NCBI GenBank assembly: GCA_947034895.1
Contig: OX344762.1
Location: 15,170,760-15,234,759 of the forward strand
Reading direction: 5' to 3'
Source of the DNA: Rhytidiadelphus loreus
Lineage: Eukaryota > Streptophyta > Bryopsida > Hypnales > Hylocomiaceae
DNA: 64,000 bases
Positions 3,801-33,104 of the stretch are shown here, piece by piece (the stretch's first letter is position 1; each line of letters begins with the position of its first letter). Under the pieces are notes generated by a model, which worked only from the letters and a program-made list of their open reading frames with translations, was not told the DNA's origin and searched no databases. A program made the translations under genes and the position numbers.

Positions 3801-5189
3801 ATTTAGAATTAATTCTCATCATGTTCACATAGGTCAGATCCTTGTTTAGAAGAAACTTACATAAGGTGTCCGTGCAGACGACCGCTAGTTGAAAGCCATG
3901 AAAGATGTAAACCATCCCATGCACAGATTGAGAGAAACTGCAAACACTAAAAACTAAGAATCTATCAAACAGTCCAATTTCCACTGGACGCTGTTGTAAC
4001 AACAAGCAGAGCGTAGATCAATTGCCGAATATCAATGAACTAGGTATTGATTTCTGGAAATGGAATCCTGCAGGTAACGAAGAAACGACCATTTGTGATG
4101 TCGCGCTCGTTGTTTCCCGGCACCGGTGCGTTCACAGCACACTGGTCCGGCGACAACGGCGCGTCCTGGAAAGACCTCCGTTATTCCATCGCGAGCATCC
4201 TCAACTCCGGCCTGTTCGGCATCCCAATGGTGGGAGCGGACATCTGCGGCTTCTGGCCAGCCACATGGGAGGAGCTTTGCAACCGATGGATCCAACTCGG
4301 CGCCTTCTACCCGTTCGCTCGCGACCACTCCGACGTGCACTTCAGCCCTCAAGAGCTTTACCTCTGGAAATCCGTCACGCACTCCGCCAAGAAAGTCCTC
4401 TTGGTCCGCTACAAGCTCCTCCCCTTCCTGTACACACTTCTACACGAAGCGCACATGAAGGGAACCCCCGTCGCCCGCGCGCTCTTCTTCGTCTTCCCAG
4501 CCGATCCCGCCACACTCGACGTCAGCGACCAATTCCTCCTCGGCGACACATTACTCGTCTCTCCTGTGCTCCGTGGTGGCCAAACCTCCGTGAAAGCGTA
4601 TTTCCCTAAAGGCACGTGGTATAACATCTTCGATTACTCCCGCATCAACTCTTCAGGCTCTCACTTCGTCCTTGATGCGCCCTGGGACTCCATCAACGTG
4701 CACATCCGCGGTGGCTCCATCGTGCCAATGCAAGAATACGCTAACACCACGGCCTTAGTGCGCCAGAGTCCTATCACATTCTTAGTCGCATTCGAAAACG
4801 GAAACTCCTCGGTGTCCGGGGAGGTTTTCCTCGACAACGATGACGACATCGACATGACTGTTCGACCTAAAAACTCCACGTACCTGAAACTGGAAGGGGA
4901 ACTGACGGCAACGGGAGGTTACATTCGCAGCAATGTCACATTCGGCGACTGGGCGGAGGCGCAGAGCTTGTATGTGCACAAGATTAGACTTTTGGGAGTG
5001 GAGAAGAGGCCCTCCTCAGTAGTGATTGATGGAGATGCTGCGCCGGAGAGTGTGAAGCTGGGTTTCAATGCAACTGTTGCGATGCTGGAGATTTCGGGGT
5101 TGCGGTTGTCGGCGGGGAAAGACTTTGAGCTTGTGTGGGACATTGTGTCTCCTCCTCCTGCTACTTCCACTCCTGTTGCTTCGAGTTGA
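841..5189 (+). CDS. GH31 alpha-glucosidase / alpha-xylosidase, membrane-anchored or secreted
   Basis: Family GH31 glycosidase that removes terminal alpha-glucosyl or alpha-xylosyl residues; plant members act in the secretory pathway and cell wall. Five exons, 841-1088, 1377-2110, 2461-2691, 2821-3311 and 4074-5189, all with GT-AG borders, join in phase to 2,820 nt (939 aa), close to the usual 900-915 aa. The start is the first ATG (841) in this frame; a second ATG follows at 847 in good context (ACCATGG). Residues about 8-28 form one hydrophobic segment ending in Trp-Trp, a signal anchor or signal peptide. The galactose-mutarotase-like N domain contains the YGLGEGTH motif. The nucleophile lies in GLWLDMNEPSNF (Asp about 475) and the acid/base in HWSGDNGASW (Asp about 595). 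The C-terminal beta domains are complete and end at TGA. I see no frameshift or stop, so the gene looks functional. Whether glucose or xylose is preferred cannot be told by eye. Confidence 0.95.
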
Positions 5190-6206: not shown

Positions 6207-6843
6207 CCCTTAAATGCCTGAGGCACCACAATATGGTGTTTGCAAAACTTTGAAGTTAAATAAATCCTAGCCAATTTGTTATTTTTAGTAGTTTATATTT
6301 GTTAAATATTCTTCTTGAAGTCTAGTTTTGCCTCTAAAAGTCCGATCTTGAAAATAAATGACAATGATTTTTCTATAAGAGATCTTGTGCACAGGTACCT
6401 TGTGCAATCTTGACTTTCCATAGTGTTAAGAGCTCTTGGAAATGAGTCTCAAATACACTAGATCTTGGAGAAAAAATCACAGTCTAAATTCATTTAAAAA
6501 ATTTGTAGATTGAATTTTGAGAAGTCGTAAATTGATTTGAGTTCTTCAAGTTAGGCCCCTTAACCTCATATTTTTTTGGTCTTCAACTTTTTAGATTTGA
6601 CTTGCAAAAAAGACTTCAATTCCTTTTTGCAATTTTAGCACCCTCATAATCAAACGTTATAATCTTTCACTTCATAAATGATATTGTTGTGCTTTCTTTT
6701 CCTATGCAATCTCTAACAAGTCTAGTTTGAATTTGTACGGTTACAATTTCAGAAAAATTGAAACATCTTATCAAAATGTTGGCATTTTGTTCAATTTAGA
6801 GCAGTTTTCAGGAAGTTGAAAACATGCCTCGAGCATTTAGGGG
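6207..6843. mobile_element. Non-autonomous TTAA-flanked element (piggyBac-type MITE)
   Basis: A 637-bp segment flanked by TTAA on both sides (6203-6206 and 6844-6847). It begins CCCTTAAATGCCTGAGGCA and ends TGCCTCGAGCATTTAGGGG, so the termini are imperfect inverted repeats of about 19 bp starting with CCC. TTAA target duplication and CCC ends are the hallmark of the piggyBac superfamily. The interior has no coding capacity. Two further TTAA elements with CCCYTAAAG-like ends occur at 15,283 and 44,832. Confidence 0.7.
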
Positions 6844-6847
6844 TTAA

Positions 6848-7810
6848 AGTAAGGGTCCATTTCAATTAGTTTCACAATGAATTGTGAGTCTTTGAATAGC
6901 GTTACAAGTAAAGAGGTATTTGGTGGTGACCTTCAGTGTCAACTTTTCTCAAAAATGGCGTTTGAGTGATAGTCTTTTCCTAAACTAGTATGAGAATGTA
7001 TGGACAAAATTTCAAAAACTTTGACCTTGTAGATGGGTAATGGTTTGCTTTGAGTATCACTTTCTAGACACACTAATTAGGTTATTTTTGTTTTAAACCT
7101 CCAAAATTTGTCTATTTTGTTCATTTTGATGAAGTAAGAAGACTCTAAAATTAAAATAAAAAAGTCATGCACCTCAATAAAATGAAGATGTATATTCCTA
7201 TTGAGTTTTTTTAATAACATTGAATTTTTTTGAATCTTTTCTTAAAGGTGAGAAAAATCGCTAAATTTTGGGATTTGCAAGCATCATAGTGTACAATTTA
7301 TTAAGTTTTTATTAATAAAATTAAATATTTAATGTATTGAACCACTTAATGTAAGTCATATCCAAAAATGATATTAAAATAAAATTATTTGATATTCCAA
7401 ATGCTTGTTTTTGAGGATTCTATATGCTTGGGACAAAACGTACTTTTTCAACTAAAAAATTCATTAAAAATTCTTAAAATTCTTAAAATTCTTTGATTTT
7501 GATTTTAAATTTATTTTTCTTGATACATTACAAGTATAGGCAACTAAAACCACATTTTGTAAAACCATACATTATTATATTTAAAAGTTGAAGTTGTTTG
7601 ATACAGTGCAATGGACTAACATTGTAGTTGAGACAACATTTTTGGGTACGCAAAGCAAACCATCACCTAGATTGCAAGATATTTGTGTTTTAAAGTGAAG
7701 GAAACAAGAATTTTTGCTCCTTGTGTTGCTAGATTATAAGACTTTGACTCTTCTTCATTTCATTTTCATACTGTCTATAGGTTTTGAATTTTGAACTTTT
7801 GATGTTATGA
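6848..7810. other. AT-rich DNA without recognisable genes
   Basis: Very AT-rich. A stretch near 6,986-7,030 (FCAAAAACTTTGA-type text) resembles one near 40,470-40,500, so this is probably old repeat debris. Nothing coding seen. Confidence 0.35.
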
Positions 7811-8048
7811 GCAATTTTGTTAAAATGGCGGTATTCCATTGGCATTTGTACTTGAAGGAGTGGAGATTGAGGTATATTGAGGCACCTATTCATCTCATAT
7901 CAAGCATCGATTGTGTCCAATGCGTGCCCAAATCACCACTTGTTTACGTATAGCATCGCCCCCACCATTGTCTTGTGCAAGATCTCATGCCGTGATTGGT
8001 CCCCTGAACCACCATTTTAATGGAATACCGCCATTTTAACAAAATTGC
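7811..8048. repeat. Foldback / MITE-like inverted repeat with 30-bp perfect arms
   Basis: Positions 7811-7840 and 8019-8048 are perfect reverse complements over 30 bp (arm begins GCAATTTTGTTAAAATGGCG). The spacer is 178 bp and non-coding. Perfect arms suggest a recent or selected hairpin, for example a small MITE or a source of small RNAs. I could not define a target duplication. Confidence 0.75.
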
Positions 8049-9294
8049 CCATTGTTGAAGAATTGTGTTGAGGAGTCTTAGGAAGAAAAAAAATTTAACT
8101 TTTTTTTTGTTCTTTGAAAAATTGTTGAGTAGAATTAGATGTAAGATAGAATGAAAATCTAAATCATTAAGTAGCTCTAAGATGGAATTGAAATGCACTA
8201 CAATTCCAATGGTGAGACTATTTCTAGCAAGCAAATTGAACCTTGTGGAACTATTTTTTTTGGAAAGTTGCAAAAGTGGAGTTCAAAAACAAATCTAATA
8301 AGTTATTTTCTCAAGAAGATGCAAAAGATTGCCCACAAAACAAGAACCTCCATAACTTTCACAATGGAACGAAATCAACGCTTTCCATGTAGAGAGAAAA
8401 TATAATCTATGAGAAACAAAAAAAAAATTTCAAATTTATTTCAAGTTTGATACATACAGAAGCCAAAGCCTCAAAAGTCAGTATCCTCTTTGATGTTGAC
8501 CAGATAACCACATGTATAGAAAAACGAGACACAAACCTCTCTCTGTTATCAACACACTGGCTTCCAGTGTACGGTGTTGTGTGAATGTGTAGTCATAGCT
8601 TGTTAATACCACTTGTTCATCTGGTTTCCTGCATCAAGACAGGCAAGTGCCAATGGCACGTGAGAGACTTTGACAACGGAGAGAAACCTAATTGCGACAC
8701 CTACCTATATATGGAACATCCCAAAATATTGCACATTGAGTACGTATAGATCATGAGAATGTACACACCTCAACACCAAAAAATCGTGTCATTTAGCAGA
8801 TAAAACTACAAACTTTCATAACTTCTGAATACATTATCCAAATAATGCATTCTCAGGGCGCGCTGGAATTCTCTTCGATAAGCTACAGTTCTGTAACACG
8901 AATCCTTTCAAATCTGGCATTTCTAAGAATAGTAACTATGCTCAGCGCAAGTATCGCTTTTGAGTGTAGGTAACATAGCATCCAGTCAAAGATCTAAGCA
9001 AAATATCTTAACCTCAAGAAGAAATTTACGACATGCTCCTACGTATTAGTTGCAGTACTTTCCTTGTGAAAGTTTACCCAGCACATGCGTAACCGCGAAA
9101 GCAGGCACTCCTCAATGAGTGACTAACCGAATCATCTGTTGACCAAAATAACCAAAATACAATCCCGTCACCACCTGATAATCACCTGCTGCCGTATGGC
9201 CTTTTCAAGAGACCAATTCCATCTATACGAAGACATAGCGGCAACAAGTTAGGTTAATAAATTTAACGAGTGAAGTGGGAGACCACAAACCGTA
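8049..9294. other. Intergenic, no recognisable gene
   Basis: AT-rich to neutral DNA between the foldback repeat and the TIP41-like fragment. Short open frames occur but none shows a family motif or splice-joined continuity. Confidence 0.35.
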
Positions 9295-9512
9295 CGTGCG
9301 AATCTCCCATTTTGCAGCAGCAGGAATCTGAGCAGGGGGGAGGCTCTCTTGCCGCCACCTTCGCAGAGCAGCATCCAACGCATTGAGGTGGGTCTTAACG
9401 CCAGTGGCTTCATGGGGAAATTTCCAGGGCATTTGTCGCCAAATACCATCTCCGGTAGGTGAATTGTTCTCAGCATTTTCTCAAACCTATACCACCACTC
9501 TGTCCATTCATT
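9295..9512 (-). pseudogene. TIP41-like protein fragment, frameshifted
   Basis: Minus-strand translation reads NEWTEWWYRFEKMLRTIHLP then EMVFGDK, and after a one-base frame change continues HEATGVKTHLNALDAALRRW, RQESLPP and IPAAAKWEIR. This order (HLPEMVFG, A(S/T)GxKxHxNAxDAL, W, E(A/S)LPPxxxPAAAKW) is the conserved core of TIP41-like proteins, which regulate type 2A phosphatase in TOR signalling. The frame break falls between FGDK and the HEATG block, and similarity stops abruptly after WEIRT, so the downstream core is missing. No upstream or downstream exons were found. Most likely a relict gene fragment; a real gene with a misread base and distant exons is less likely. Confidence 0.65.
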
Positions 9513-10189
9513 GACGTTTGGCGTCCCATGCCGTGGACCTTGTTGTAGGACAGAAGTGCAACTATTCATCCTCAGAATATTGTTGTGAAAAGGAGAAGTG
9601 TTCTACAGTAGGTTGACTTCCAATGACGGAGTGCTTTTGCTATTTCTAAAGCCGATGATTCATACTGTAATGAAAAGGGATGATTTCGGCTTCTTTGTTT
9701 TGTGGTTGCTCGTTTTTTTTTTCCCTTTGTGGTTTTATTTTGGTTGAGGTTGAGTGAAAAAAGAAAAATTGATCGCTGAGGTTTTGTCCTCTGGTTCTGT
9801 GTACTGTTTCCGCTTATCAATGCGAATTGTCCATTTGCTTTAAAAAAAAGAAGATGGGATGATTTCCAAGGTCACCCCCTTCGTCATTTGAAGGGTTACT
9901 ACACCTACGTCACATTCCAGATCATGAATCGAATCAATTTCTTCCGATTATCACCCAAGAAAGAAAGAAAAACTAAACCTCTGGACAATTTGAATTCGAA
10001 TTTCGAATCACTCACTTCTCGAGACGGCACATTCCAAATGACTGCAGTAATTTCTCCCGACTATCATAAAAAATTCTCCTCCAAGAAAGAGAAAACCCGA
10101 AACCTGCTCTGGACAATTCGAATTTCGATTTTCCAAATCACTCACTTCTCGCGAGGCCCCATTTTGAGGATTGGTTTCTTGCGCGTCAA
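9513..10189. other. Intergenic
   Basis: No supported gene. Two near-copies of a phrase around GGACAATT(T/C)GAATT lie near 9,983 and 10,112, within a short local duplication (about 9,955-10,150). Confidence 0.35.
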
Positions 10190-10313
10190 GATGGACCAGC
10201 CGCCGACGCGAATTCCTCGGACTCCATCGCCTTCGATCAACTGTGCGCCTTTCGCTTGCAAGGCCTTGTTACGTCGGAGCGACTCTTCGTCAGTTTCCAG
10301 ACAATCCGACTAC
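10190..10313 (+). CDS. Possible first coding exon of an unknown protein
   Basis: An ATG in strong context (AAGATGG) opens a GC-rich frame coding about 41 residues (begins MDQPPTRIPRTPSPSINCAP, Ser/Pro/Arg-rich). It ends at a plausible donor, CTACAG|GTTGGT. The base composition stands out from the AT-rich surroundings. I found no second exon that joins to it and recognise no family. It may be a truncated gene 5' end or chance. Confidence 0.2.
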
Positions 10314-11430
10314 AGGTTGGTTTAATTGTTCAGCGACGTTGCCACATGTGCAACCGTCACAGGCCATGCTCAATCAATCGCGATTGAAATAAATCCCAAC
10401 GCGGTTGACTTGCGGATCACATTCAAGGTATTCTTTGGCTTTGATTTCAGATAATTTGATCTTCCCACCTTGTCCTGATCAATGCTCTTAAAAAATTTCC
10501 AATCTTTCTTAGGCTCAAAGGAAAGGAGCCTTGCTTTAACAAAAGCTACAGTCGATGTGAGGAAGTTTGAGTCTTTTACTCTTCTTTTTTTTGTTGTTTA
10601 TAGCTACTGAAAAAGTGAGCAAATGCAACAGTGTGTCGGAACTTATTGTAGAGTAGCTGCTTGTTTTATAGCTCCTGAACAGATTTTTCTATAGAGACGG
10701 CAAATTGAAGAGCATTTACAGGACTCAGAAAGACAAAAATGATTGATTGCACGAGAGTGCATACACTATATAATGGGAGCAGTTGATCTCCTTGTGGAAA
10801 GAGTACATGTGAGGTTCTCGTAGCCCTTGAGGGACTAAACTACGATATATGCTACATTCCAACGCAAACTTTTCACTCTGAAAGTATAAATACAGAAGCT
10901 AGTGATATAAGCTTAAGACCATCACCTTGTGCCACACTATGGCAGCAAGAAACGTGGTCCACTACAATTCACAGAAGCCCATACAGAGAAACCATGGTAC
11001 AAATGTTCACATTCGGAAAGACTTCAAGCGTTTTTCGTTAAATCTGTAATCTCCTCCAACGAAAGTTTCTGACACCAAAATCACCACAAAAATAGAGTAA
11101 ATGAGAAAGAGGTGAGAAGCGCACGTAAATCTCAATCACAGTGCAGTGACCTACAACATTACCACTGCCATCACTGTCCACAAACTTCAATTGTCCTATT
11201 CTACATGTTTCATTCAAAATTTCACCAACATTCTTGAAGCAAAAACGTTTCCAACACACCAGTGTTTTCAAGTTTCAAAACACTGGAATTCTAGGTAAGC
11301 AACACAGAAGCATTTAAAAATTTTATGACTTGGTAAAAACTCAACAAAATTTCGCAACAGGAAATTTTGAAATAATTTGTTCATGACTGGAGAGGTAAGG
11401 CAACTCATGTTCAAGTGCATAGAAATATAC
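10314..11430. other. Region 3' of the FTR gene; possible last exon near 11,038-11,235
   Basis: Mostly non-coding. On the minus strand a frame after a TTCAAG acceptor near 11,236 reads NVGEILNETC and continues open to 11,038. The EILNET segment resembles the (D/E)EIKETT tail of FTR catalytic chains, so it may be the last FTR exon, but the extra length would be unusual. Confidence 0.3.
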
Positions 11431-20463: not shown

Positions 20464-20473
20464 ACTATAATCA
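20464..20473. repeat. Left target-site duplication ACTATAATCA
   Basis: Perfect match to 33,095-33,104. With this boundary the element starts CA and ends TG. Confidence 0.85.
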
Positions 20474-20541
20474 CAACGGTTCTAGATTGTGAGCGTGTGA
20501 GCGCGAGCCTGCGAGCGTTGAGCAGGAAGTATGTGAGCGCG
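20474..20541 (+). repeat. Left terminal inverted repeat with GTGAGC cluster
   Basis: After the 20-bp terminus come clustered GTGAGC and related GCGAGC/TTGAGC copies up to about 20,540. They are the inverted counterpart of the cluster at 33,034-33,094 and are likely transposase binding sites. Confidence 0.75.
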
Positions 20542-20642
20542 GAGTTCTGAAATTAAAAAAACTGAGTAATATTTCAAAAAATAGAATTTTTTTAATAATT
20601 ATTATAAAACTTACTATTTCGAGTAAATTTTAGTACACAATG

Positions 20643-20740
20643 ACCGTGGACCTATGACCGTGGACTTAGCACCATGGGCCGGTTACCGTGGACTTAGCAC
20701 CCATGACTTCTTACCGTGGATCTATTACCGTGGTTATGTA
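20643..20740 (+). repeat. 14-bp subterminal tandem repeat, seven units
   Basis: ACCGTGG begins at 20,643, 20,657, 20,685, 20,713 and 20,727, with degenerate copies (ACCATGG, ACCCATG) at 20,671 and 20,699. This gives seven units of exactly 14 bp (for example ACCGTGGACTTAGC). It lies between the left terminus and the 3' end of the transposase gene. I do not see a counterpart at the right end. Confidence 0.8.
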
Positions 20741-20980
20741 CAATTTGTATAAATTTTTTAATTTTAATAATTGGTTACAGTAATAGAAGTACATATTGTG
20801 AAAGGCAAACAGATGACCTATAGGAAAATGCAAATTCTGATTGAAAATAGGTTGTATTGAATACTTCAAGGAATTACTGTATTTGTCCAAATACAAAATG
20901 GTACTTTTGAAGCTAGACATCTATGAATAGTCTACAGTCCTTCAATCATTAACACCGATCAGTTAGGTATTGTTGGACTT

Positions 20981-23900
20981 CTAAACATGTTGAAGACTAT
21001 CCTCCGAAACTTTGATGATACCGGCCTTTGTGAGAAGGAGCTTCACTTCATTGAAGCTGAAGCTTGGAGAATGTATGAAGTTATCCTCTGTCGGATTCAT
21101 TTTGCTGAAGTAGCGAAGTAAGTAATAAAGATGTTTGCAATGAACATACTGTTGGCGTCCACCAATTGCTGAAACAGCCATGTCGACAAAATCGGGACAA
21201 GTGCACTCTGGATACATGCCAAGTGTAATGCGATAAAGCTTCTGCTTTGGCTCAAGTCCGGATTGAAGGGAGATTATGGCTCCAAGTCCAGGGAAGGGGA
21301 GCAAGGTTACTCCCAAAATCGTTCCCTTGACATTACCAGCGCTCTCCCATTTATTGCGGTGCTCTGTTGTAGGAGCATTTGCAATACGTCGAATAGCCTT
21401 GCTCCTTCGAGTAGTTGGATTTGTGTCTGCATGTAAAGGACTAGGGTGATCATAGTAGATGGCCTAGAAGACATTGGACATGGTGAATAAACGTCAAGGG
21501 GACATAGCTGGCCGTTGTTGTAGCTGGAAACCAGCCTCCTGTAGCAACAACGTCTCTTGGCGGGTCAAATTAGTGCCTGTTAGTACAGGCCACACATCCG
21601 GGACTTGGGGCCAATCAATTACCCAACTACGTTTAGATCCTTGTACACATCGTTCAATATCATCTGGGCAAAACCAGAAGTCGGTCATGATCTCCTTGTT
21701 TCCGCCATATTGTTTTTTTCTACCACGGTAGGTCGGAGCTGGTGTACCACTAGATCCCTTTGCAATTTTGGCAACACAATGGATGTTTGAACTTCTTTGT
21801 TGCGCGTGACACTTGCAACTGGACTTGTGCGAAATTCTTGCAATATGCCACTGTGAAGTATCACATTCACTCTCCATTGCAGTTGTCACATGTGGTACAT
21901 GGGCAGAATCAACCAGTGTGTCTGCTTCATTAGAGGCAACCGTGGGTGAACGTGTCGATCGTGTCTGTACTCGAGGCTGAGAGAAGTTTACCTTGTCTGG
22001 ACGATGGGAGTCACCATCTGACCCAATCGGAAGGTCAAGCTTGCGCTTACTGCTACCAAATACTTCTTCGCCTTCCAAATGCGGAATACGTGATCCAACA
22101 CCGGCCCCTCCAGGAAGTTCATTGAGTGCCTCCGCAATCTTCTTTGGATCACCGCTACGTCTAGCGCCTCGTAACTTTAACTCCTCTTTGGATGGCCCTG
22201 ACCTTGATATGTTGCCATTAAGAAAAGCTCGATAATTGGTCATTTGCATGAAAGCTCGAATGCAGTCATCAGAAGTGGCAGCAAACAAATCATTACCCCG
22301 ATTACCTGACTGCTGCAACCACCTATTATGGACTGTTTCGGATAAGTTGCATGACGGCATATCCGCCATCTCCTCAACATTTAAGTCCTGAAACAATGAT
22401 ATCAAAGACAAAGTAAAAGAAAAATTAAGTATCACCACTGATAGTTCTCATTTACAATGACACAGTTAAACTTTGATCTAACCACTATGCGGCAAAGGCT
22501 CCCCTCGGCGCCGAGGGGAGAATCCCCGATACCCTAGAGTGATGAATATCTCCAAACAAGGCAGAAATATTTGTTCCAAATTTGATTTCAGAAAAATAAA
22601 AGTGGATCCATAAGATTGCAGAATGAAAATAATTAGGTAGAAGAAATACCATTTGCATAAAGCCGCCCCATTGACGATATCTGAAGTGCCAAAATGCAAG
22701 CCACAACTCCAATTCCCTCATAGCATCTTCCGAGGCTGCTCCAGATGAAAGCCACCAAGATCGTATCGCTAGGTAACGCATCTCAGCTTCGTCCATAGAT
22801 TTGGAGTCTTTGTATTGCTTACAAAGTCGAGTATGTTGGTGTTGCAAGTCCGGCTTGATGAGCTTCTGTGTATGGCGATGCAAAGAGGTACTCCAATGTA
22901 AAAGACATGTTCTCTCCCGGTTCACCATCTCTATTTTAGGATCTCCTGATCCGTAGACAATTCGAACGACATTCCAATTCGCTTGTGCACTGTCTGCCAT
23001 AAAGCCTTTAAAGTTTGGATTCTCAATGCCATTGCGTCTCATGACTCCGTTCAGAGATCTCCACATGATGCATTGAACCACAGTGTCCTCAGATTGCATA
23101 TCACACACAGCAATTGTCATGACTTTCCTGCAACCTGTATCATAAACGTGGCAGGCTATGGTTGTCCAGTCTTTAACTCGCTTGACATGGTCAAACATGA
23201 GCCATGCGTTCTCCAGATCTCCGCCCGGTTGCATCCGATTCACAAGGTCCACACCACTCCCTGGTCCTTCTACTAGCATTTTAAACAAATAAACCTTCTC
23301 CTTGCCTTGACCAGGAAACACACTGTCATGGATGTACTCAAACCGCAAATTTCTTTTCATATTCATGATACTATCTATTATCCCACTTTTGCCACTTGAA
23401 CGGAAAGACGAAATAACATTTCGGATATTAGGAGAACTTAGTATTTGGAACTTGTCTATGACATCATCTAACGAATCTCCCCGCAACATCTGCTTTGGAC
23501 CTTCACCGTTGTGTATCAAGTGGTTATCAAGAAATTTCTTGCTAGCTGCTAGGGCAATGGCAGAGTTAGTGGCATTAGGGGTTTTCGAAACCTCACTAGC
23601 GATGAGTCCGGCTACAACACCTAAGGACTCTCTACATGTTCCTGAAGCTACATGATGCACGTGATTCCCCAAATGAATGCAAGCTCTAGTCATGCTTGCA
23701 GAATCTCCAAAAACGTAATAGATTCGAGCATGACAGACATTGATGCAATGAGGCGGACATTTGCATATCTTACAGAGGAGAGTAGAATCCTTTGGAGGAA
23801 ATGCACCAATACAAAATGGACCAGGAGTAAAACCACACCACTCAGTCTCGTTCGGATGAGAAGAACGCTTCAAGTAGTCGCATTCTGAATTCTTACAGAT

Positions 23901-24797
23901 AAGATGGCCGGCACAGGAAGATTTTCTGAACTTTAGGCCGTCGTGATTGTTGATGTTAGACGTCATTGTCCTACACCAAGCGTGACCATCGTATCGTTTA
24001 TCCATGCCCTGTAACTTCCCAGCAGAGGACGACGAAATCGAAATTGGAAGAGAAGGCAACTCAAAAACTACATCTCCGTTAAAATTTGTAGGAAGGTACT
24101 GCACCTTATGATGGATGAGTGCATCATAGTCTATCGAAGCTACTTCGTTCCGAGAACCATGCATCGCCGCTAGCTTGCGTAGGCAACCAACAATACTAAT
24201 CGCAGATGCACAACTAGGATATGTTGGTGGACGGAAGTGCGTGGACAGAGCAGGACTACTAGAAGGCGTTAAATTTAAACTAGACGGTGTCATGTGGGCC
24301 CCCTCAGAGACTCTACTAGGAAGTGCTGGTTGGTTTGGAGACTCTCCCTCGGACTCACTCGAGAGATCTATGACATGGTCATTTGGTTCCTTCTTGACGG
24401 TGACAAACGGAAGAAGATTGACAACATTCCTAACATGCTCACGTTCTAAAGTGTTATGGTTGTCACGATGGGAAGGAGGCATATCCAGTGTAGAATGCTC
24501 GGAATGCCGAGGTAAGATCTGAGTGGAGTTTGTACTCATCACAGACGGTAAACCATAAGCTCGATAGCGCCCTCGACGAAGATGCCAGACATGATTGTCA
24601 TCAATTACCATTCTCTGCATATGGATCAACTCTCTCAAAATGCCAGACTCAGACAGTACCTCCTCTTCAACATAGATACTAGACAGGGCAAATCCAAAAC
24701 GTACATGAAGAAGGTGAGCAGACACCGCCACAAAATCTCCATCTCCTAGAGGGAGTATGAGAGGAACCTCGTGGCCATCCGCTCTGAGGGAGGCCAT
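20981..24797 (-). CDS. MULE-class transposase with GCM/WRKY-like zinc domain, DDE core and SWIM finger
   Basis: Predicted to cut and move the surrounding 12.6-kb element. Exon 1 is 24797-22650, exon 2 begins at 22387, exon 3 is 21463-20981 (TAG stop). The exon 2 donor is provisional (about 21587, the in-phase GT); with it the product is about 1,143 aa. Residues 136-150 hold VKKEP and VIDLSSESE, a sumoylation site next to a SUMO-binding motif. Residues about 268-382 form a Cys/His-rich domain (YDGHAW, NNHDG, SCAGHLIC, CKICKCPP, HLGNHVHH) like the GCM/WRKY zinc fold seen in MULE-type transposases. The catalytic core has candidate Asp 536 (LMFDHV), Asp 602 (MADSAQANWN), the MULE-type C-x2-H (RTCLLHW, 631-634) and Glu near 695-697. 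Exon 3 carries a SWIM finger, CTC then x19 then CKH (about 1070-1094). The frames are open, so this transposase may be intact. Confidence 0.85.
22499..22520. repeat. 22-bp perfect GC palindrome in transposase intron 1
   Basis: The core CCCCTCGGCGCCGAGGGG, extended by CT and AG, is its own reverse complement. It sits in the 262-bp intron 22,388-22,649. The same CGGCGCCGAGGGGA core is the most conserved part of the minisatellite at 26.6-28.1 kb, in the other gene of the element. Confidence 0.8.
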
Positions 24798-26216
24798 CTT
24801 TCAGAAATCAAAGAGCAACATCGACAATGACAATATGACCTAAACTTCTGCAGCGCTCAAGAAAGGTTGAATCTAGAGCCTCTCCCAAACAGATTTGATA
24901 ATAAATAATTTTCAATGTCAGTATCTGCAATCAATATCCATCAATGAAATAGAATCCGTATACAATGTACTTGGAAGCGCAGACGATACAGACAGTTGCA
25001 GTTGTAATTAAGGAAATGCGCTCACCTATCCATTGAATAAAATTAACACCAAAGCCAAATGAAATTAACTTTATTAAGGTTAGTAGTTTGTTTCTGGCAC
25101 CATATGAGGCTTATGAGCATGAAGTAATTACTGAACTTCTCTGTAACCATGTTCCTGCTATTACGTAAAGGAGATCGTTCCTTCTAGAAATTAAGTAGCG
25201 CCGACTATGGAGTCTAAACATAAAGTGTCAGCAGTCACCAACAAAATTATAGGCACACGCTAGTGAAAATGGAGTACTCTATTTTAGTAATGTGCAATTT
25301 GAAAGATCGGATTAGACAATCTTGTGGTATTTAATAATATCAATTATTGTAATTCAAATGACTAGTAGGTTCAAATCATGTACGCCTGAGACGAATTATA
25401 ATATTAAAAGTACTGAATCCTGCTTAGCAGATGTAGTGATGATAGCATCATTGGTAACAATTCTGTAGAATGCATACATTGTTCTACTTCAATATAATAC
25501 CTCACTTCCCACTAATAATCAACAATATGGTCGACTGTATATACTATTAGTCATATGCTTACGCCAGATTGCACACGCGATGGAATTGTGCATACATATA
25601 GGAAAAGGAGGAAGAGAAGAAAACTTTTATTTTCTTCTAGTAGGGAGTTGCACAGGTCAAGGAATAGAAGTAAGAAGGTTGCATTACTGTGTGAGTCCGA
25701 GTCGTGCGAAGAAACTGCAACTGCTCAAATGCAAGAATACGACTTCCATGGAGATCTCATTGTTGAGAGTCAACATATTGTAACGAGCCTAGAAGAAGGG
25801 CCGCAGAGGAACAGCATTGGCCACGGGTGATTGCGTAATGTCGTAAGTGAATTTACTCTCCCTTCACATTTGCTACCTCTTCGCAATATTGTGTATTGGC
25901 GATACCATTATTATACCTACTGATGTATTTGGATGTGGTAGTACGTACTTTCGTAAATCAGGTAGTTATCCTCAAAGTAAATGAGTTCTACAAATAATCT
26001 CACCACCACATTAGGTATGAAATTTTGATAGATCACTTCTCCTAAACACGAAGACTAATGGTCAGACAGTAAGCTTTGTAGAATCTAAGACATTGAGCAT
26101 TGGTTCAATCCTTGTGCAAGTTCCTAAGAGGTTAGGGTTCGTAGTCATCCTTCATTGAAGGACCGAATCCTTAATCACGGATCACTGACGTATTTCTTGT
26201 CAACACGAAGACTGAA
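24798..26216. promoter_or_regulatory. Divergent intergenic region of the transposon
   Basis: Lies between the divergently read transposase and ParB-methyltransferase start codons, so it should contain both promoters. AT-rich. An open plus-strand frame at 25,555-25,830 (Arg/Lys-rich, begins MLTPDCTRDGIVHTYRKRR) is of doubtful reality. Near 25,792 the text GAAGAAGGGCCGCAG repeats a phrase from exon 1 of the downstream gene. Confidence 0.4.
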
Positions 26217-29200
26217 ATGGCGAGAAGACGAACCACTAGGAGCGCGGTCGCGGAGGCTCAGAGAAGTGAAGATCACGATATGAATAGCAACGATGAGGAA
26301 GAAGGGCCGCCTCAGGGGAACACGACGGATGCACGGCCAAGTATGGGCTCTGAGGAAGAAGGGCCGCATCAGGTGATCACGATGGTTGCACCACCAACTT
26401 CGGGCTCTGCGGAGGAGAGGCCAGATCAAGTGAACACAACGGATGAACCGCCAACTGCGGGCTCTGAGGTAATCGTCATTCCACCATCACTAGGAATCCT
26501 AGACAAGGGCAGAAACATGAATACAGAGTAAACTGGATTGCTTGATCGTTTTGGGGGTTTGTCCCGCAAACGTAAGTCTCCGATAGAGATTCTCGAATTT
26601 TGTTTTAGGGTAAGGCTACCCCCGACCAAACCCCCGACCATGCCATCGGTGCCGAGAGGAAGTAAATCCCATAGAGGGTTACATCCGAGAAGGTAGGCAC
26701 GGCCCACATAGGGTTTAATCACCGGTCACGTTCCTCATTAAAACACCCCCTCAAGGGCCATGCCATCGGCGACGAGGGGAAGGGTTGCCCACCGAGGGTC
26801 TGATCCGCGGAGGCTTGTCCCCATGTACGTTTCTTCGCAACTTATTCGTTTATGAATGCTGATCAAGGCAACCTCCAACGGCCACACCATCGGCGCCGAA
26901 GAGAAGGGCTGCGCACCCAGGGTCTGATCCGAGGAGGTTTGTTCCCCGACACGTTCTTCGTGATTTTTTTTTCGTTTTATCAATGCTGATTAGAGAACAC
27001 CCCCCAGGGCCTGGCCATCGGCGCCGAGGGGAAGGGCTGCGCACCTGGGTTTGATCTGAGCAGGCTTGGGCCCGAACACGTTCTTCGTGAATTTTTTTTC
27101 GTTTTATGAATGCTGATCTGAGAGCACCCCTGAGGGCCACGCCATCGGCGCCGAGGGGAAAGGCTGCCCACCGTGGGTCTGATCCGAAGAGGAAAGGGCC
27201 AAGGTACGTTTCTCCGTTATTTTTTTTTTGTTTTATGAATACTGATCAGAGAGCACCCCCCAGGGCCTGGCCATCGGCGCCGAGGGGAAGGGCTGCGCAC
27301 CTGGGTTTGATCTGAGCAGGCTTGGGTCCGAACACGTTCTTCGTGAATTTCTTTTCGTTTTATGAATGCTGATCTGAGAGCACCCTCGAGGGCCACGCCA
27401 TCGGCGCCGAGGGGAAGGGCTGCCCACCGTGGGCCTGATCCGAGGAGGCTTATCCCCGACGCTGTCTTTGTGATTTTTTTTTCGTTTTATGAATGCTGAT
27501 CTGAGAGCACCCTTGAGGGCCACGCCATCGGCGCCGAGGGGAAAGGCTGCCCACCGTGGGTCTGATCCGAAGAGGAAAGGGCCAAGGTACGTTTCTCCGT
27601 TATTTTTTTTTTGTTTTATGAATACTGATCAGAGAGCACTCCCCAGGGCCTGGCCATCGGCGCCGAGGGGAAGGGCTGCGCACCTGGGTTTGATCTGAGC
27701 AGGCTTGGGTCCGAACACGTTCTTCGTGAATTTCTTTTCGTTTTATGAATGCTGATCTGAGAGCACCCCCGAGGGCCACGCCATCGGCGCCGAGGGGAAG
27801 GGCTGCCCACCGTGGGCCTGATCCAAGGAGGCTTGTCCCCGATGCTCTCTTCGTGATTTTTTTTTCGTTTTATGAATGCTGATCAGAGAACACTCCCCAG
27901 GGCCTGGCCAGCGGCGCCGAGGGGAAGGGCTGCACACCTAGGGCCTGATCCGAGGAGGCTTGTCCCCGACATTCTCTTTGTGATTTTTTTTTCGTTTTAT
28001 GAATGCTGATCAGAGAGCACCCCCAGGGCCACGCCATCGGCGCCGAGGGGAAGGGCTGCGCACCCAGGGTCTAATCCGCGAAAGTTATCCTCCAACAATG
28101 CATTTGTCTATGTAATGATCTTTTTCATTGTCCGTTATGTTTCAGGTGCAAGTAGGTGGACCGGTTCGAGTTTTGGATTCTTCAATGGAGAGTATCACAA
28201 CTGCTGTCAATGACCTCGTGATCGTGAATATTGACCAAGACATGGGGGAGGCTCACGAGGAATTCAAATCCGAGGATGCCTACAGGAGGTCACAGAAGGT
28301 GAATTCTGTGGCCTCCATCGCCGACTTACGTCTGAAACCTACTTCCATATCTCGGCTGCGGATTCCGTTATGTCGCCTTGTCCAGATGCCCATGGTTAGA
28401 CCCGCACTTCAGAGTGATCTCACGAAATTGGAGTAGGAGTTCGTTCATGGGTATAGAGATGGATCAAATGTTTTTTATGTGTCACTCACTAATGAGCAGG
28501 GGGAGACTGAGATGGTGTCTGCTGCGGAAAGAGAGGCTTGGGGGCCAATGTGGAATGAAGAGAATGACATCTTCAATGCGATTCTGGACGCCACACCAGG
28601 TTTGCAGAACTTCAAGGGGTCTAAGTTCTTCGTTTGTGATGGAAACCATAGACTTCTGGCGTGGACCTCTTACATTAGCAAACACCACGACTATGAGAAG
28701 GATTGGCATATATCAGTGGACTCGATCATTCTTGACACGAAGGGCAGGATTGGTGATGTCATGCATGCTATGCACGACATCAATAAGTAAGTGCTCCCAT
28801 TCAGGCATTTTTTTATTTTTGGTTTACAATGTAATCATTTAAGATGATTTTGACGTTTTTGTTTTCTGTTTCAGGCATACGGAAAGTTCGTTCATCAAGA
28901 CCAGTCTTGTTCATACGCTTTATCGTGTTCAGAAATATGGCATGCTTCCGCTTGAGAAGTTCTCAGAGCATTTGAGTGAGTCCGAGATGACTCAGTGCCA
29001 CCAGAATCTCCGAAAAAGTTGGTACTCGATGTCCGTTGAGGTGTTCACTTCATTCATCTATCGGGTAACGATTCTCACAGAACGTGTGCGTATTCTTTGT
29101 ATGTTTGAGTTGTGTAGAAGCATTAATCCTTCCAATGTTTTGCTCACTTCCATGTTGTTTTGCAGTATGAGATAGCTGCGGCTGCCGACATAGCAGTTAG

Positions 29201-32200
29201 GTTGTATAGGGAAGAGACACCTGAGGATCTGCAGTCAGAGGCGGGTGTGTTGGCTGCCATGAGGTTAGGTACGAAGGAGAAGACAGCAAGGTTAGTGTAG
29301 AAGTTGGGAAAGCTGACTGCTGTGGCCAATCCCAATCTGGGAAATGAGTGGCTCCAGGAGGTATGATGACATTTCTTTAGACCTCTCGTTTTTGTCTTCT
29401 TCTCGTTTCATTTAGTTTATTCAGCTTCAAGTGATTTATGCTTTCAGATCGAGCGTCATTGGAGCTCCAACATCACTCCCGAAATGACTCTGGAGAAGTT
29501 GCAGTTGATTGCAACATGCAATGTGAGCAAGGAGCATAAGGTTAAGTGGCTTACATGGTGGAACTCATCAGTTCAAACGAGGGAGGCAAGAAGGTTCCCA
29601 CTGAAGCCAGCTGGAGAGATAGAACTGAAGTCTTTCCTATCGAAGGCGTGCTGGTATGCAGGGGTAAGTGTTTTTAGTTCATTTCATTCATGTTTTAGTC
29701 ATCTCGTTTTCGGGTTGCGATCTAGTCCACGGTGACATTGGATGGTTAGTGCAATTTGGATTGCGATGTAATCTATTACTATACATGACAACTTTTAATG
29801 GCCTTGCAGATACAAGACACGGGAGCTGAAATGTTTGATAACATTGTGAAGAAAGACCAGTTGAAATTAGCTATGGACTCTCCCCAAGAGCCCGAGACTT
29901 TTCCAGAGTATGTTGAGGACTGGAGAATTCGAGTGTGGGACCACGCTTTCTTGCCCCAATTTCGGGGACACGATGTCTTCAGAAAGTCAGATGACTTCAA
30001 GAAACACAAGGGCTCTGATCTAGTTGTCAAACGGGTGATCTACCGGTGAGAATTTGATATCTTAATGCCATTGTGATATGTTTCATTAAGTTTGTTTACT
30101 GCGATGTTTAATCATTTTCTGTATTCTGAAGAGTTTGGTCTGTACAGGTATTTCAAGTATGAACTGTTGCCTAAGGGGGCAATTGCAAAGCGCGATCTAC
30201 CTGCATTTTGGGGAACATGGTTGGATGTTTCATCAGAGCATTGTATGTTCTCGGCGTCGCAATTGAGATGGTGGACGAGTTTGCATTTGAAAACCGGTGC
30301 GTGGTATTTGGATTGCCCGCTGGAATTCACGCCGTTGCCTGAGGACCATTTGAAGCGGTCGATCAATACTGATGCTGTGGTTCAAGATGTTGACGAGTTT
30401 GCCGGCCTTGATGACAATGCCAAGGCAAAGGCAATCAAGAGGAGAGACGACGTCGACAAGAAGATTGCACTCAAGAACTCCGAGGCGGTGGACAAGGCAA
30501 AGGAGAGAGCCACAAAGAAGACAAAGAAGCTTACTGAGTCGGAGCAAGTACTAGTGGCGGAGAAGGGAAAGGGGAAAGGGAAGAATGCCGAAGAGGGTGT
30601 CTTACGTTCATCCACAAAAGACGAGGGCTCCCAACATCAACGCTCCAATTCACGTGGCACTAAGTGTGATTCTGAGTATGCTTCACTTAGCAATGACGAG
30701 ATGCAACATGGTCCATCCGCTGTAGAGTACCTTCAGGATTCGGAGATATTGATTGCCGAGCTGGTTCTAAATTACTCTCTTACTGATGTCTTGGCCGATC
30801 CTCTACCCCAAGTATACCATGACATTGTCAGTTTTCTTGACAAGGTTCGCATTTTCAATTTCTTCCATTTTTTACTTTGGTTTTTGCTCTTTAACATTAT
30901 TGGTCTGTTTGCTAATTGATTAAATCATTTTGCAGCACAAAGGAGAGAAGGAGCGTTTCTTCCGTGGTGTTCGGAGTGATAAACCCCGAGTGGACCTCGT
31001 CATTGCGGACATGCCCGAGGGTTTGCCTGTCCCAGGTCTATCGGCACCTGCACATACTGTTCCGAAATGGAACATGGTCCACCCTTATGGGCTAGAGGCG
31101 GTGTTCGAGTTTGCTGATGGTCATTTGCACGATGACGGTGCGTTACTCATTATTCATTCTCGGAGTCCTGTCGTCAAGGCTACGATTTTGAAGTACGCTG
31201 CAACATATTCGTTTAAGAAGATGAAGGATTGGTGGGGAACGAATTGGCTTCATTTGGCCTCACCAATCTCTACTGGATGTACGGTATGATCATCCTTCAC
31301 TTTTCCCTATTTTATTCATGGATTCGTCTTCTCTTGACAAAAATGCTATCATTCTTGAATATGACATAATGTACTATAGGTGGTGTATTTTTTGTTTACT
31401 TCTATTTTGATTCTCTTAATTGATTACATTTCTACTTCTATGGATTTGTTATGGCAACTAATAGTTCATATTTGATCATTCAATTTGGACTAATTCACCG
31501 TGTATCTCTTTGCTCTTGTAGACTCAATTCTTCCGTGTCATGTTGCTGGTTAGGAACTTGGATGGTATTGGTCCTTCCAAGTTTCAATTCCAGCCATGCC
31601 CAAAGTTGAGGGAGCTAGGAGTAGATGTGGCAGTTGATGATGTTATTCAGAATTTCACGAAGAAAGAGACATTGACCATGGATAGCAAATTCAAGCCTTG
31701 GAGGGGTGCAAGAGAAAAGGATCCCCGATTCATGCAGATGTTGATAGAAGCATCAACGTTTGCCAATGATGTTGTTATTGATTGCACTGCTGCGACCGGT
31801 ATGTGCATGAGCATTCAATGTCTTCTATTGTTTTTGTTGATCCAAATTTTTTCTTCAATTCTCATTGAGTTTTGTAGTAATTGGATTTGTTTTGTTTTGT
31901 GGATTAGGGGCTTCCATCCACGCTTGCAGGATTTCGAGCAGGCACATCATTGCACTTGAAGAAGACAAAGCCATTTTTGAGGCAATTTTGGCCCCAATGA
32001 TTCGCGCACCGAAAGATGTTCCACCTATAGTCGTTGCCGTTGTATAGGATTCTGACGATGATGAAGGTCAGGAAATTGAAGTTCCCCACATCGTGAAGAA
32101 ATCTCGTTTCAGTAAGTAAGTCTACCCATGCTTGCTTTTTTCCAAAATTTCCTAGAGATAGATGTCTACTATTCATTATTTTCACTTCAAGTTTTTCTTC

Positions 32201-32535
32201 CAAGCTTCTTTCATTGTGAACGTGAACTTCTTGCCATTCCTAATTATCATTTTTTCATTTGCAGCATGACTTACAATTCGGTGGCTCTCCGGCCATTTTT
32301 CACTCTACCATCTTTTTTTCCAAGCCCGGAGAAGCCCTTTTTGTTGCCATCATATGCAGAGGCTGTCGCTGGGACATTGGCCTGTCAAGAGGATTTTTGT
32401 AGATGGAGAAAGTCTAAGTCTTTAGACCCTACAATTCTGCAATTTATAGATGAGACAGCTCTAGAATCAGAGCAGGAGATCTCATCCACTGAGAGTAGTG
32501 ACAACTCTCATTCTATGTCTTCGTCATCTACATGA
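26217..32535 (+). CDS. ParB-like / N6A-N4C DNA methyltransferase fusion, 11 exons, three in-frame TAG codons
   Basis: Exons 26217-26468, 28146-28786, 28875-29064, 29166-29360, 29448-29663, 29810-30045, 30148-30844, 30936-31283, 31522-31798, 31908-32115 and 32265-32535 all have GT-AG borders and sum to 3,531 nt (1,176 codons plus TGA), every junction in phase. Exon 1 starts at ATG (GAAATGG) and encodes acidic repeats of about 20 aa (EEEGPPQ, EEEGPHQ, EERPDQ). Exon 2 holds a ParB/Srx-like motif, FVCDGNHRLLAW (Asp about 249). A charged Lys-rich linker lies at about 665-780. A methyltransferase fold follows, with the catalytic loop first (VDLVIADMPEGLP, Asp 834) and the SAM-binding motif last (DVVIDCTAATGASIHACR then IALEEDK, about 1008-1035), the order of beta-class amino-methyltransferases. 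The catalytic D-P-P-Y/W reads DMPE, so activity is uncertain. In-frame TAG codons at 28,434, 29,298 and 32,045 break this copy; flanking coding texture continues unchanged. ParB plus N4/N6 methylase is otherwise a bacterial/phage pairing. Confidence 0.78.
26600..28090 (+). repeat. GC-rich minisatellite, about 127-bp unit, 12 copies, inside intron 1
   Basis: The core CCATCGGCGCCGAGGGGAAG recurs at about 26643, 26763, 26887, 27015, 27142, 27271, 27398, 27525, 27654, 27781, 27908 and 28034, spacing mostly 127-129 bp. Each unit also has TCGTTTTATGAATGCTGATC, a poly-T run and a GTCTGATCCGAGGAGG-like box. Units differ in subtype, and 27,106-27,315 is almost identical to 27,489-27,698, a 383-bp three-unit higher-order repeat. 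The array fills intron 26,469-28,145; open frames across it are repeat artefacts. Confidence 0.92.
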
Positions 32536-33033
32536 CTCTATTTTTTGTTTGTTTTCAGGCGTTGATTTTTATTTTATTGTTTATTGTACGTTGTTTTGTG
32601 TACTTCAATTAGAATTATCTACATAATCCTGATCAAGAACAAATAGTTAGAGGTACAACTTCATACCCTAAACCCTGATCCAAATCTTTTGTTGAATCAA
32701 AAACTGCATTCTACAAGCTATATTTCAGTATGTAAAAAAACATCATGAACAATTTATTTTTATGGATGAAATTCACATCATCAACCCCAAAAATAAATAG
32801 CCTGATTTCAGTGCAATTGTGATTTGTAGACTAATTATCTTTTTCTTTATAAATACCCTAACATAGTGTCAATAAAATTTGCAATGAATTTCACTGATAA
32901 TGGATTCAGTTACTCTACAATCAGAAAATTTAAATCACAATTTATTTTTTCCCATCATATATTGTGAGGTGTAGTCCTCATTCCAATTTCCACAGTCATA
33001 GGTACTTCATCAATTTCCAACAGAAAAAATTGT
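32536..33033. other. 3' subterminal region of the transposon
   Basis: AT-rich, non-coding DNA between the TGA of the ParB-methyltransferase gene and the right GTGAGC cluster. It should contain the 3' UTR and polyadenylation site. Confidence 0.4.
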
Positions 33034-33094
33034 ATGCTCGCATGCTCACACGCTCACACGCTCACGCTCACAGGCTCACAAAATAGCAACCCTG
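33034..33094 (-). repeat. Right terminal inverted repeat with GCTCAC cluster
   Basis: GCTCAC/GCTCGC copies (GTGAGC/GCGAGC on the other strand) leading to the terminus ending GCAACCCTG. Inverted counterpart of 20,474-20,541. Confidence 0.75.
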
Positions 33095-33104
33095 ACTATA
33101 ATCA
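33095..33104. repeat. Right target-site duplication ACTATAATCA
   Basis: Perfect copy of 20,464-20,473. Confidence 0.85.

What the first reader, a model, noticed from the sequence alone, without database searches (positions are those of the whole stretch)
20464..33104. A MULE-class transposon that carries a ParB-methyltransferase gene
Seen directly: a 10-bp perfect direct duplication and inverted GTGAGC-rich ends enclose 12.6 kb with two divergent spliced genes, a GCM/SWIM transposase and a ParB-like plus N6A/N4C methyltransferase fusion. Known: MULEs often capture host gene pieces, and other transposons carry DNA-modifying enzymes (for example KDZ elements with TET/JBP genes in fungi). Inferred: the methyltransferase is element-encoded equipment that marks the element's DNA, steers transposition or blocks silencing. 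I know of no described plant MULE with this cargo.
Basis: partly seen in the sequence, partly recalled or inferred. Interest (0 to 1): 0.92.

Follow-up and report, generated by a model that had tools for sequence, protein, structure and literature searches.

The report
Jumping gene carrying DNA-methyltransferase-fold gene
A large family of plant-type jumping genes carries, besides its transposase, a gene for a protein that appears to have the fold of bacterial DNA methyltransferases, and the first intron of that gene often holds clusters of mirror-image DNA motifs, which suggests that the element recognises and marks its own DNA.

Summary
Window 20474-33094 is one copy of a Mutator-like (MULE) transposon with an exact 10-bp target duplication and two divergent spliced genes. 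At least 256 loci of the gene exist, in several subfamilies. It lies divergently beside 85 of 98 close transposases and at least 22 of 52 distant ones (29 untested). Between diverged copies both genes show dN/dS well below 1. A liverwort (Riccia) has a diverse family of the protein. A model of one Riccia relative has the fold of DNA amino-methyltransferases (MboIIA, CcrM). However, the catalytic motif is D-[MLI]-P-[TSE]-G rather than DPP[YFW], and the ParB label rests on one motif.

New: dyad-symmetric motifs cluster in the gene's first intron. Here the motif is TCGGCGCCGA, which recurs in the transposase intron; distant subfamilies have other dyads. This resembles VANDAL/VANC tandem-repeat targets. 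Most likely the protein binds these sites and marks or de-silences the element. Binding, enzyme activity and effect are inferred, not shown.

The parts
20464..20473 (.). left target-site duplication ACTATAATCA
33095..33104 (.). right target-site duplication ACTATAATCA
20474..33094 (.). whole MULE element, 12,621 bp
20474..20533 (+). left GTGAGC-rich terminal inverted repeat (imperfect)
   Evidence: 27 of first 35 bases match the right end
33035..33094 (-). right terminal inverted repeat
20643..20733 (+). subterminal short repeats around ACCGTGGAC
   Evidence: TRF; possible transposase sites (inference)
22650..24797 (-). transposase exon 1 (716 aa: GCM-like zinc domain and RNase-H-like DDE core; weak ubiquitin/PB1-like match at the N terminus)
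22388..22649 (-). transposase intron
   Evidence: GT/AG in 11 of 11 copies
22499..22520 (.). perfect 22-bp palindrome CTCCCCTCGGCGCCGAGGGGAG inside the transposase intron
   Evidence: intact in 10 of 11 copies
20981..22387 (-). transposase exon 2 with SWIM-type CxC..CxH motif (by eye); two premature stops in the window copy
26217..26468 (+). methyltransferase gene exon 1 (acidic, internally repeated N terminus)
26469..28145 (+). methyltransferase gene intron 1, holding the dyad array
26744..28078 (+). tandem array, 127-bp unit x 10.5, units built around TCGGCGCCGA(GGGGA)
28146..28786 (+). methyltransferase gene exon 2 (ParB-like candidate domain; one premature stop in this copy)
28638..28652 (+). 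DGNHR motif (basis of the ParB-like label)
28875..29064 (+). methyltransferase gene exon 3
29166..29360 (+). methyltransferase gene exon 4
29448..29663 (+). methyltransferase gene exon 5
29810..30045 (+). methyltransferase gene exon 6
30148..30844 (+). methyltransferase gene exon 7
30936..31283 (+). methyltransferase gene exon 8 (start of the Rossmann domain)
31008..31022 (+). motif IV variant D-M-P-E-G
31522..31798 (+). methyltransferase gene exon 9, ending in the SAM motif I (DCTAATG)
31908..32115 (+). methyltransferase gene exon 10 (rest of motif I; match to PF01555)
32265..32535 (+). methyltransferase gene exon 11 with stop

Best explanation
Shown: this is one copy of a MULE lineage whose standard second gene encodes a large protein, homologous to Riccia proteins with a beta-class DNA amino-methyltransferase fold, and whose introns carry clusters of subfamily-specific dyad-symmetric motifs. 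Inferred: the protein recognises those dyads through its N-terminal/middle part, is loaded at the arrays in the element's own introns, and acts along the element in cis on all copies. There it methylates adenine-N6 or cytosine-N4, or at least holds the region, so that the element stays expressed and escapes host cytosine-methylation silencing. This is the role that VANC plays for VANDAL MULEs. Fast evolution of the protein together with replacement of the motif keeps each subfamily self-specific. Probabilities: integral element gene about 0.98; dyads are the protein's binding sites about 0.55; anti-silencing or self-marking as net effect about 0.4.
Against: No binding, methylation or expression data. 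Motif IV is D-[MLI]-P-[TSE]-G, not DPPY: the aromatic residue and first proline are missing. ParB domain unconfirmed. In c4_68.04 and c3_43.72 the exact-arm dyad scan is weak, top counts 3 and 2, although mismatch-tolerant counts are strong; L049 is also weak. The dyad patterns used with mismatches were chosen after looking at the sequences. The transposase-intron copy of the motif is absent in c4_68.04. One locus without a detectable methyltransferase gene still has the CTCGGATCCGAG dyad twice. Tandem arrays homogenise, so unit-level conservation is not independent evidence. The genome-wide count of the motif outside elements did not complete.
Confidence: 0.5

Rival explanations
1. The protein is a catalytically dead or partner-dependent methyltransferase-fold DNA binder (like the inactive half of METTL3-METTL14 type pairs, recalled) and works only by occupying the dyad arrays.
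For: Motif IV lacks the first proline and the aromatic residue in 11 of 11 element copies and in 17 of 17 Riccia rows that cover the place (16 D[MLI]P[TSE]G, one N-I-P-T-G); motif I is partly degenerate in the window family (DCTAATG).
Against: The aspartate (16 of 17 Riccia rows), second proline and motif I are kept over deep divergence, and the fold model covers the whole catalytic domain, which suggests that SAM binding is kept.
Confidence: 0.3
2. The methyltransferase acts in transposition itself: it marks element DNA so that replicated or inserted copies are told apart (as Dam controls Tn10; recalled), with the intron dyads as loading sites.
For: The gene is consistently coupled to the transposase.
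Against: The dyads found sit in introns, not in the terminal inverted repeats where a transposase acts.
Confidence: 0.15
3. The dyad arrays are ordinary minisatellites or splicing-related repeats with no link to the protein.
For: Arrays of 3-29 unit copies behave like unstable minisatellites; MULE clades with minisatellites are known (PMC6446971, passages).
Against: The same core recurs outside the array in the transposase intron; other subfamilies have other dyads in the same intron, some not in tandem; shuffles give about none.
Confidence: 0.25
4. The gene is a captured host gene fragment, a typical MULE passenger.
For: MULEs tend to acquire host gene fragments (PMC6446971, start of abstract in the listing).
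Against: Full-length, intron-bearing, dN/dS well below 1, in 32 of 32 end pairs and in diverged subfamilies; of 34 close copies each has at least one element end.
Confidence: 0.02

Closest known systems
VANDAL MULEs with VANC anti-silencing proteins (Arabidopsis; PMC5735166, passages)
   Same: MULE; element-encoded second protein; fast turnover; repeated short motif in introns of the element's own genes
   Different: VANC has no methyltransferase fold (recalled); its motif YAGTATTAY is not a palindrome; here the motifs are dyads and the protein is of DNA-methyltransferase fold
Mutator-like elements in general (survey PMC6446971, passages)
   Same: 8-11 bp target duplication, SWIM motif, accessory genes in some clades
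   Different: the words methyltransferase, methylase and GCM do not occur in that survey's main text; in the table passages shown the nearest accessory domain is SET in Phytophthora MULEs
DNMT-bearing retrotransposons of dinoflagellates and charophytes (PMC5890265, start of abstract)
   Same: transposable element that carries a DNA methyltransferase
   Different: retrotransposon and C5-cytosine enzyme there; DNA transposon and amino-methyltransferase fold here
ParB-methylase fusions of bacteria and phages (PMC5512222, passages)
   Same: possible ParB-like part joined to an N6-adenine-type methylase
   Different: no detected sequence kinship beyond fold and a weak motif I match; ParB part unconfirmed here
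Rotifer N4CMT, a eukaryotic N4-cytosine methyltransferase (PMC8885841, start of abstract; PDB 8s9m)
   Different: not transposon-borne as far as recalled; 15% identity over the aligned part

Membership tests
Mutator-like element (MULE) | 8-11 bp target duplication | tested here: met
   10 bp, exact in 10 of 13 copies with both ends read
Mutator-like element (MULE) | terminal inverted repeats | tested here: met
   imperfect, 27 of first 35 bases
Mutator-like element (MULE) | Mutator/IS256-type DDE transposase with C(2)H motif | tested here: inconclusive
Mutator-like element (MULE) | SWIM zinc finger | tested here: inconclusive
   CTCPDF...CKH motif in exon 2, seen by eye; no profile run on exon 2
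beta-class DNA amino-methyltransferase | Rossmann fold with motif IV before motif I | tested here: met
   model of Riccia relative P0021, residues 791-1067; colinear with the element protein. The element protein itself was not modelled
beta-class DNA amino-methyltransferase | catalytic (D/N/S)PP(Y/F/W) | tested here: not met
   D-M-P-E-G in 11 of 11 element copies; D[MLI]P[TSE]G in 16 of 17 Riccia rows that cover the place
beta-class DNA amino-methyltransferase | methyl transfer to DNA | not testable with these tools
   needs biochemistry
ParB/Srx domain | profile or fold match | tested here: inconclusive
   0 PDB profile hits, no ParB family among Pfam hits; DGNHR motif only; that part of the model is of low confidence
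VANC-type anti-silencing system | second element protein plus repeated motif in the element's own introns | tested here: met
   resemblance of layout only
VANC-type anti-silencing system | VANC protein homology | not tested
   no VANC sequence was compared
VANC-type anti-silencing system | loss of DNA methylation on element copies | not testable with these tools
   no methylome at hand

The most novel reading that the evidence does not exclude
A eukaryotic transposon superbranch with its own parS-like system: a ParB-like DNA-methyltransferase loads on element-specific dyad arrays in the element's introns and writes a non-5mC mark (6mA or 4mC) that tells self copies from host DNA and blocks silencing, with protein and dyad co-evolving between subfamilies. 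It would be a self-recognising epigenetic writer carried by a DNA transposon in hundreds of copies.
Probability: 0.3. Interest if true: 0.95.

Novelty: new variant of a known kind. Interest (0 to 1): 0.87.

Why it matters
Whether 6mA or 4mC are written and used in land-plant nuclei is, to my knowledge, open. Here is a naturally amplified, conserved gene family with a DNA amino-methyltransferase fold, tied to a transposon, with candidate target sites that differ between subfamilies. That makes the question directly testable. It also gives a second, independent-looking case for the VANC idea that MULEs evade silencing by a protein with target repeats in their own introns.

Tried and rejected

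Limits: the genome search scored 150 candidates per protein query (of 1386, 1340 and 1394) and 40 per DNA query (of 518 and 651), so all copy numbers are lower bounds. The 45 rows are 40 places plus 5 second pieces of the same places. Of 52 transposases at 75-78% identity, 18 pair by the lists, 4 more by reading and 1 shows none; 29 are untested. Of 106 methyltransferase loci at 67% or more, 22 have no listed transposase within 40 kb; at least 6 of those 22 have element ends, the others were not examined. dN/dS used 9 of 11 copies for the methyltransferase (the two with an indel in the coding exons dropped) and 10 of 11 for the transposase (one with gaps dropped). Pairs within the youngest group give ratios up to 2.8 from few changes. 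256 loci = listed rows 150+150-44; they are exon-2 matches, broken ones included. Intron limits used for the relatives were set by eye.
Full report
What is there. Window 20474-33094 is a 12,621-bp element between exact copies of the 10-bp duplication ACTATAATCA. Its ends are imperfect inverted repeats rich in GTGAGC. On the minus strand lies a two-exon transposase. On the plus strand, divergently, lies an 11-exon gene for a protein of 1176 residues. The window copy is decayed: three premature stops in the methyltransferase gene and two in the transposase, all C-to-T changes against the majority of the copies read.

The gene belongs to the element. The genome of the window (407 Mb, 489 contigs, unnamed) was searched with both ends: 45 rows at 40 places for the left end and 40 rows for the right end, with only 40 candidates scored each. 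Of the 40 left ends, 32 pair with a right end at 11.6-110 kb; 8 do not. 31 of these 32 pairs enclose a methyltransferase copy of at least 83% identity in exon 2, and the remaining pair encloses one of 70%. Of 34 such close gene copies, 31 lie inside end pairs and 3 have one recognised end nearby. Ten other copies were read in full: 10 of 10 are colinear with the window element. Four of 11 copies have an open methyltransferase frame with standard splice sites, 5 of 11 an open transposase frame and 2 of 11 both.

The gene is old in the element and conserved. Searches with exon 2 of the methyltransferase find at least 256 loci in the same genome, in groups of 83-100, 67-79 and 56-60% identity to the window family, plus rows closer to a distant member. 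Transposase searches give three groups. Divergent pairing within 40 kb holds for 29 of 30 transposases at 93-100% and 56 of 68 at 84-92%; in 200 controls with shifted positions on average 0.86 (maximum 4) of 150 pair. Seen from the other side, 28 of 34, 56 of 72 and 8 of 44 methyltransferase loci have a listed transposase. In the 75-78% transposase group 18 of 52 pair within 15 kb by the truncated lists. Of 5 further loci read, 4 carry the gene and 1 shows none in 17 kb. dN/dS between lineages is 0.27-0.42 for the methyltransferase and 0.19-0.28 for the most diverged transposase. Four such pairs give Fisher p of 4e-4 to 4e-20. The methyltransferase diverges faster: in c3_43.72 its exons are at 44-73% amino-acid identity while the transposase is at 79-95%.

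The motif arrays. Intron 1 of the methyltransferase gene holds a tandem array of 3-29 units per copy; the 3 are in c5_21.03, whose unit has diverged. The most conserved 14-mers of 160 units lie on GGCGCCGAGGGGA (97% against a mean of 89%). The same core lies in a perfect 22-bp palindrome in the single intron of the transposase gene, intact in 10 of 11 copies. In the 64-kb window TCGGCGCCGA occurs 10 times, all inside the element. The diverged relative c3_42.03 has a 106-bp unit of different sequence that keeps CCATCGGCGCCGAGGGGA in its consensus, and an 18-bp palindrome with the same core in its transposase intron. c3_43.72 keeps 7 near-matches (up to 2 mismatches) in intron 1 against 0.09 in shuffles, none in 9.5 kb of the rest of the element, and one in the transposase intron. 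c4_68.04 carries another palindrome, TCAGTCGGATCCGACTGA, at 5 places (0-3 mismatches) in that intron, not in tandem. c4_7.18 carries TTGCGN4CGCAA 9 times there, 6 of them in the repeat-rich first 750 bases, and nowhere else in the 7 kb read. L050 and L051 carry further dyads upstream of exon 2, mostly in tandem; L049 is weak. An exact-arm dyad scan that assumed no motif ranks these first in the window, c3_42.03 and c4_7.18 (9, 11, 9 copies; shuffle maximum 2), but is weak in c4_68.04 (3) and c3_43.72 (2).

How it most likely works. VANC proteins of VANDAL MULEs bind short motifs that form fast-changing tandem repeats in introns of the element's own genes and remove DNA methylation over the whole element (PMC5735166, passages). 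The layout here is alike, with a methyltransferase-fold protein and dyads in place of VANC and its motif. I infer that the protein loads on the dyads and marks or frees the element. Binding, enzyme activity and effect are not shown.

Novelty. Six literature searches (listings only, open-access full text only) showed no MULE with such a gene. A survey of MULE clades does not contain the words methyltransferase, methylase or GCM in its main text (PMC6446971, find). Subscription papers, for example Iyer and Aravind on eukaryotic adenine methylases (recalled), could not be checked.

Noticed in passing
window 1438-5189: Two open frames with the look of a glycoside hydrolase family 31 (alpha-glucosidase-like) host gene left of the element (by eye, recalled).
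   Followed up: no
window 26294-26469: Exon 1 of the methyltransferase gene is itself a 57-bp coding tandem repeat (3.1 copies).
   Followed up: no
L042-L043 (reverse complement, c4_68.04): A second, oppositely oriented element with its own methyltransferase gene appears to be inserted into the methyltransferase gene of the first.
   Followed up: partly
L037-L038 (c3_43.72), about 6800-10900: Intron 1 of the methyltransferase gene is interrupted by a roughly 4-kb insert that looks like another repeat element.
   Followed up: no
window and L017-L036, coding regions: All six premature stops in the nine indel-free methyltransferase copies are C-to-T changes (CAG or CGA), as expected from deamination of methylated cytosine in CHG/CG sites; one transposase stop is G-to-A.
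   Followed up: yes
Riccia sorocarpa proteins P0001-P0031: A diverse family of the same protein in a liverwort (34-88% local identity to P0001), annotated as hypothetical, one as trimethylguanosine synthase.
   Followed up: partly
L039 (C1:15325500-15331350): Shares about 400 terminal bases (69%) with the element's right end without a detectable methyltransferase gene.
   Followed up: partly
L047 6543 and 6799: CTCGGATCCGAG dyads in tandem beside a distant transposase whose methyltransferase gene was not found in 17 kb.
   Followed up: partly
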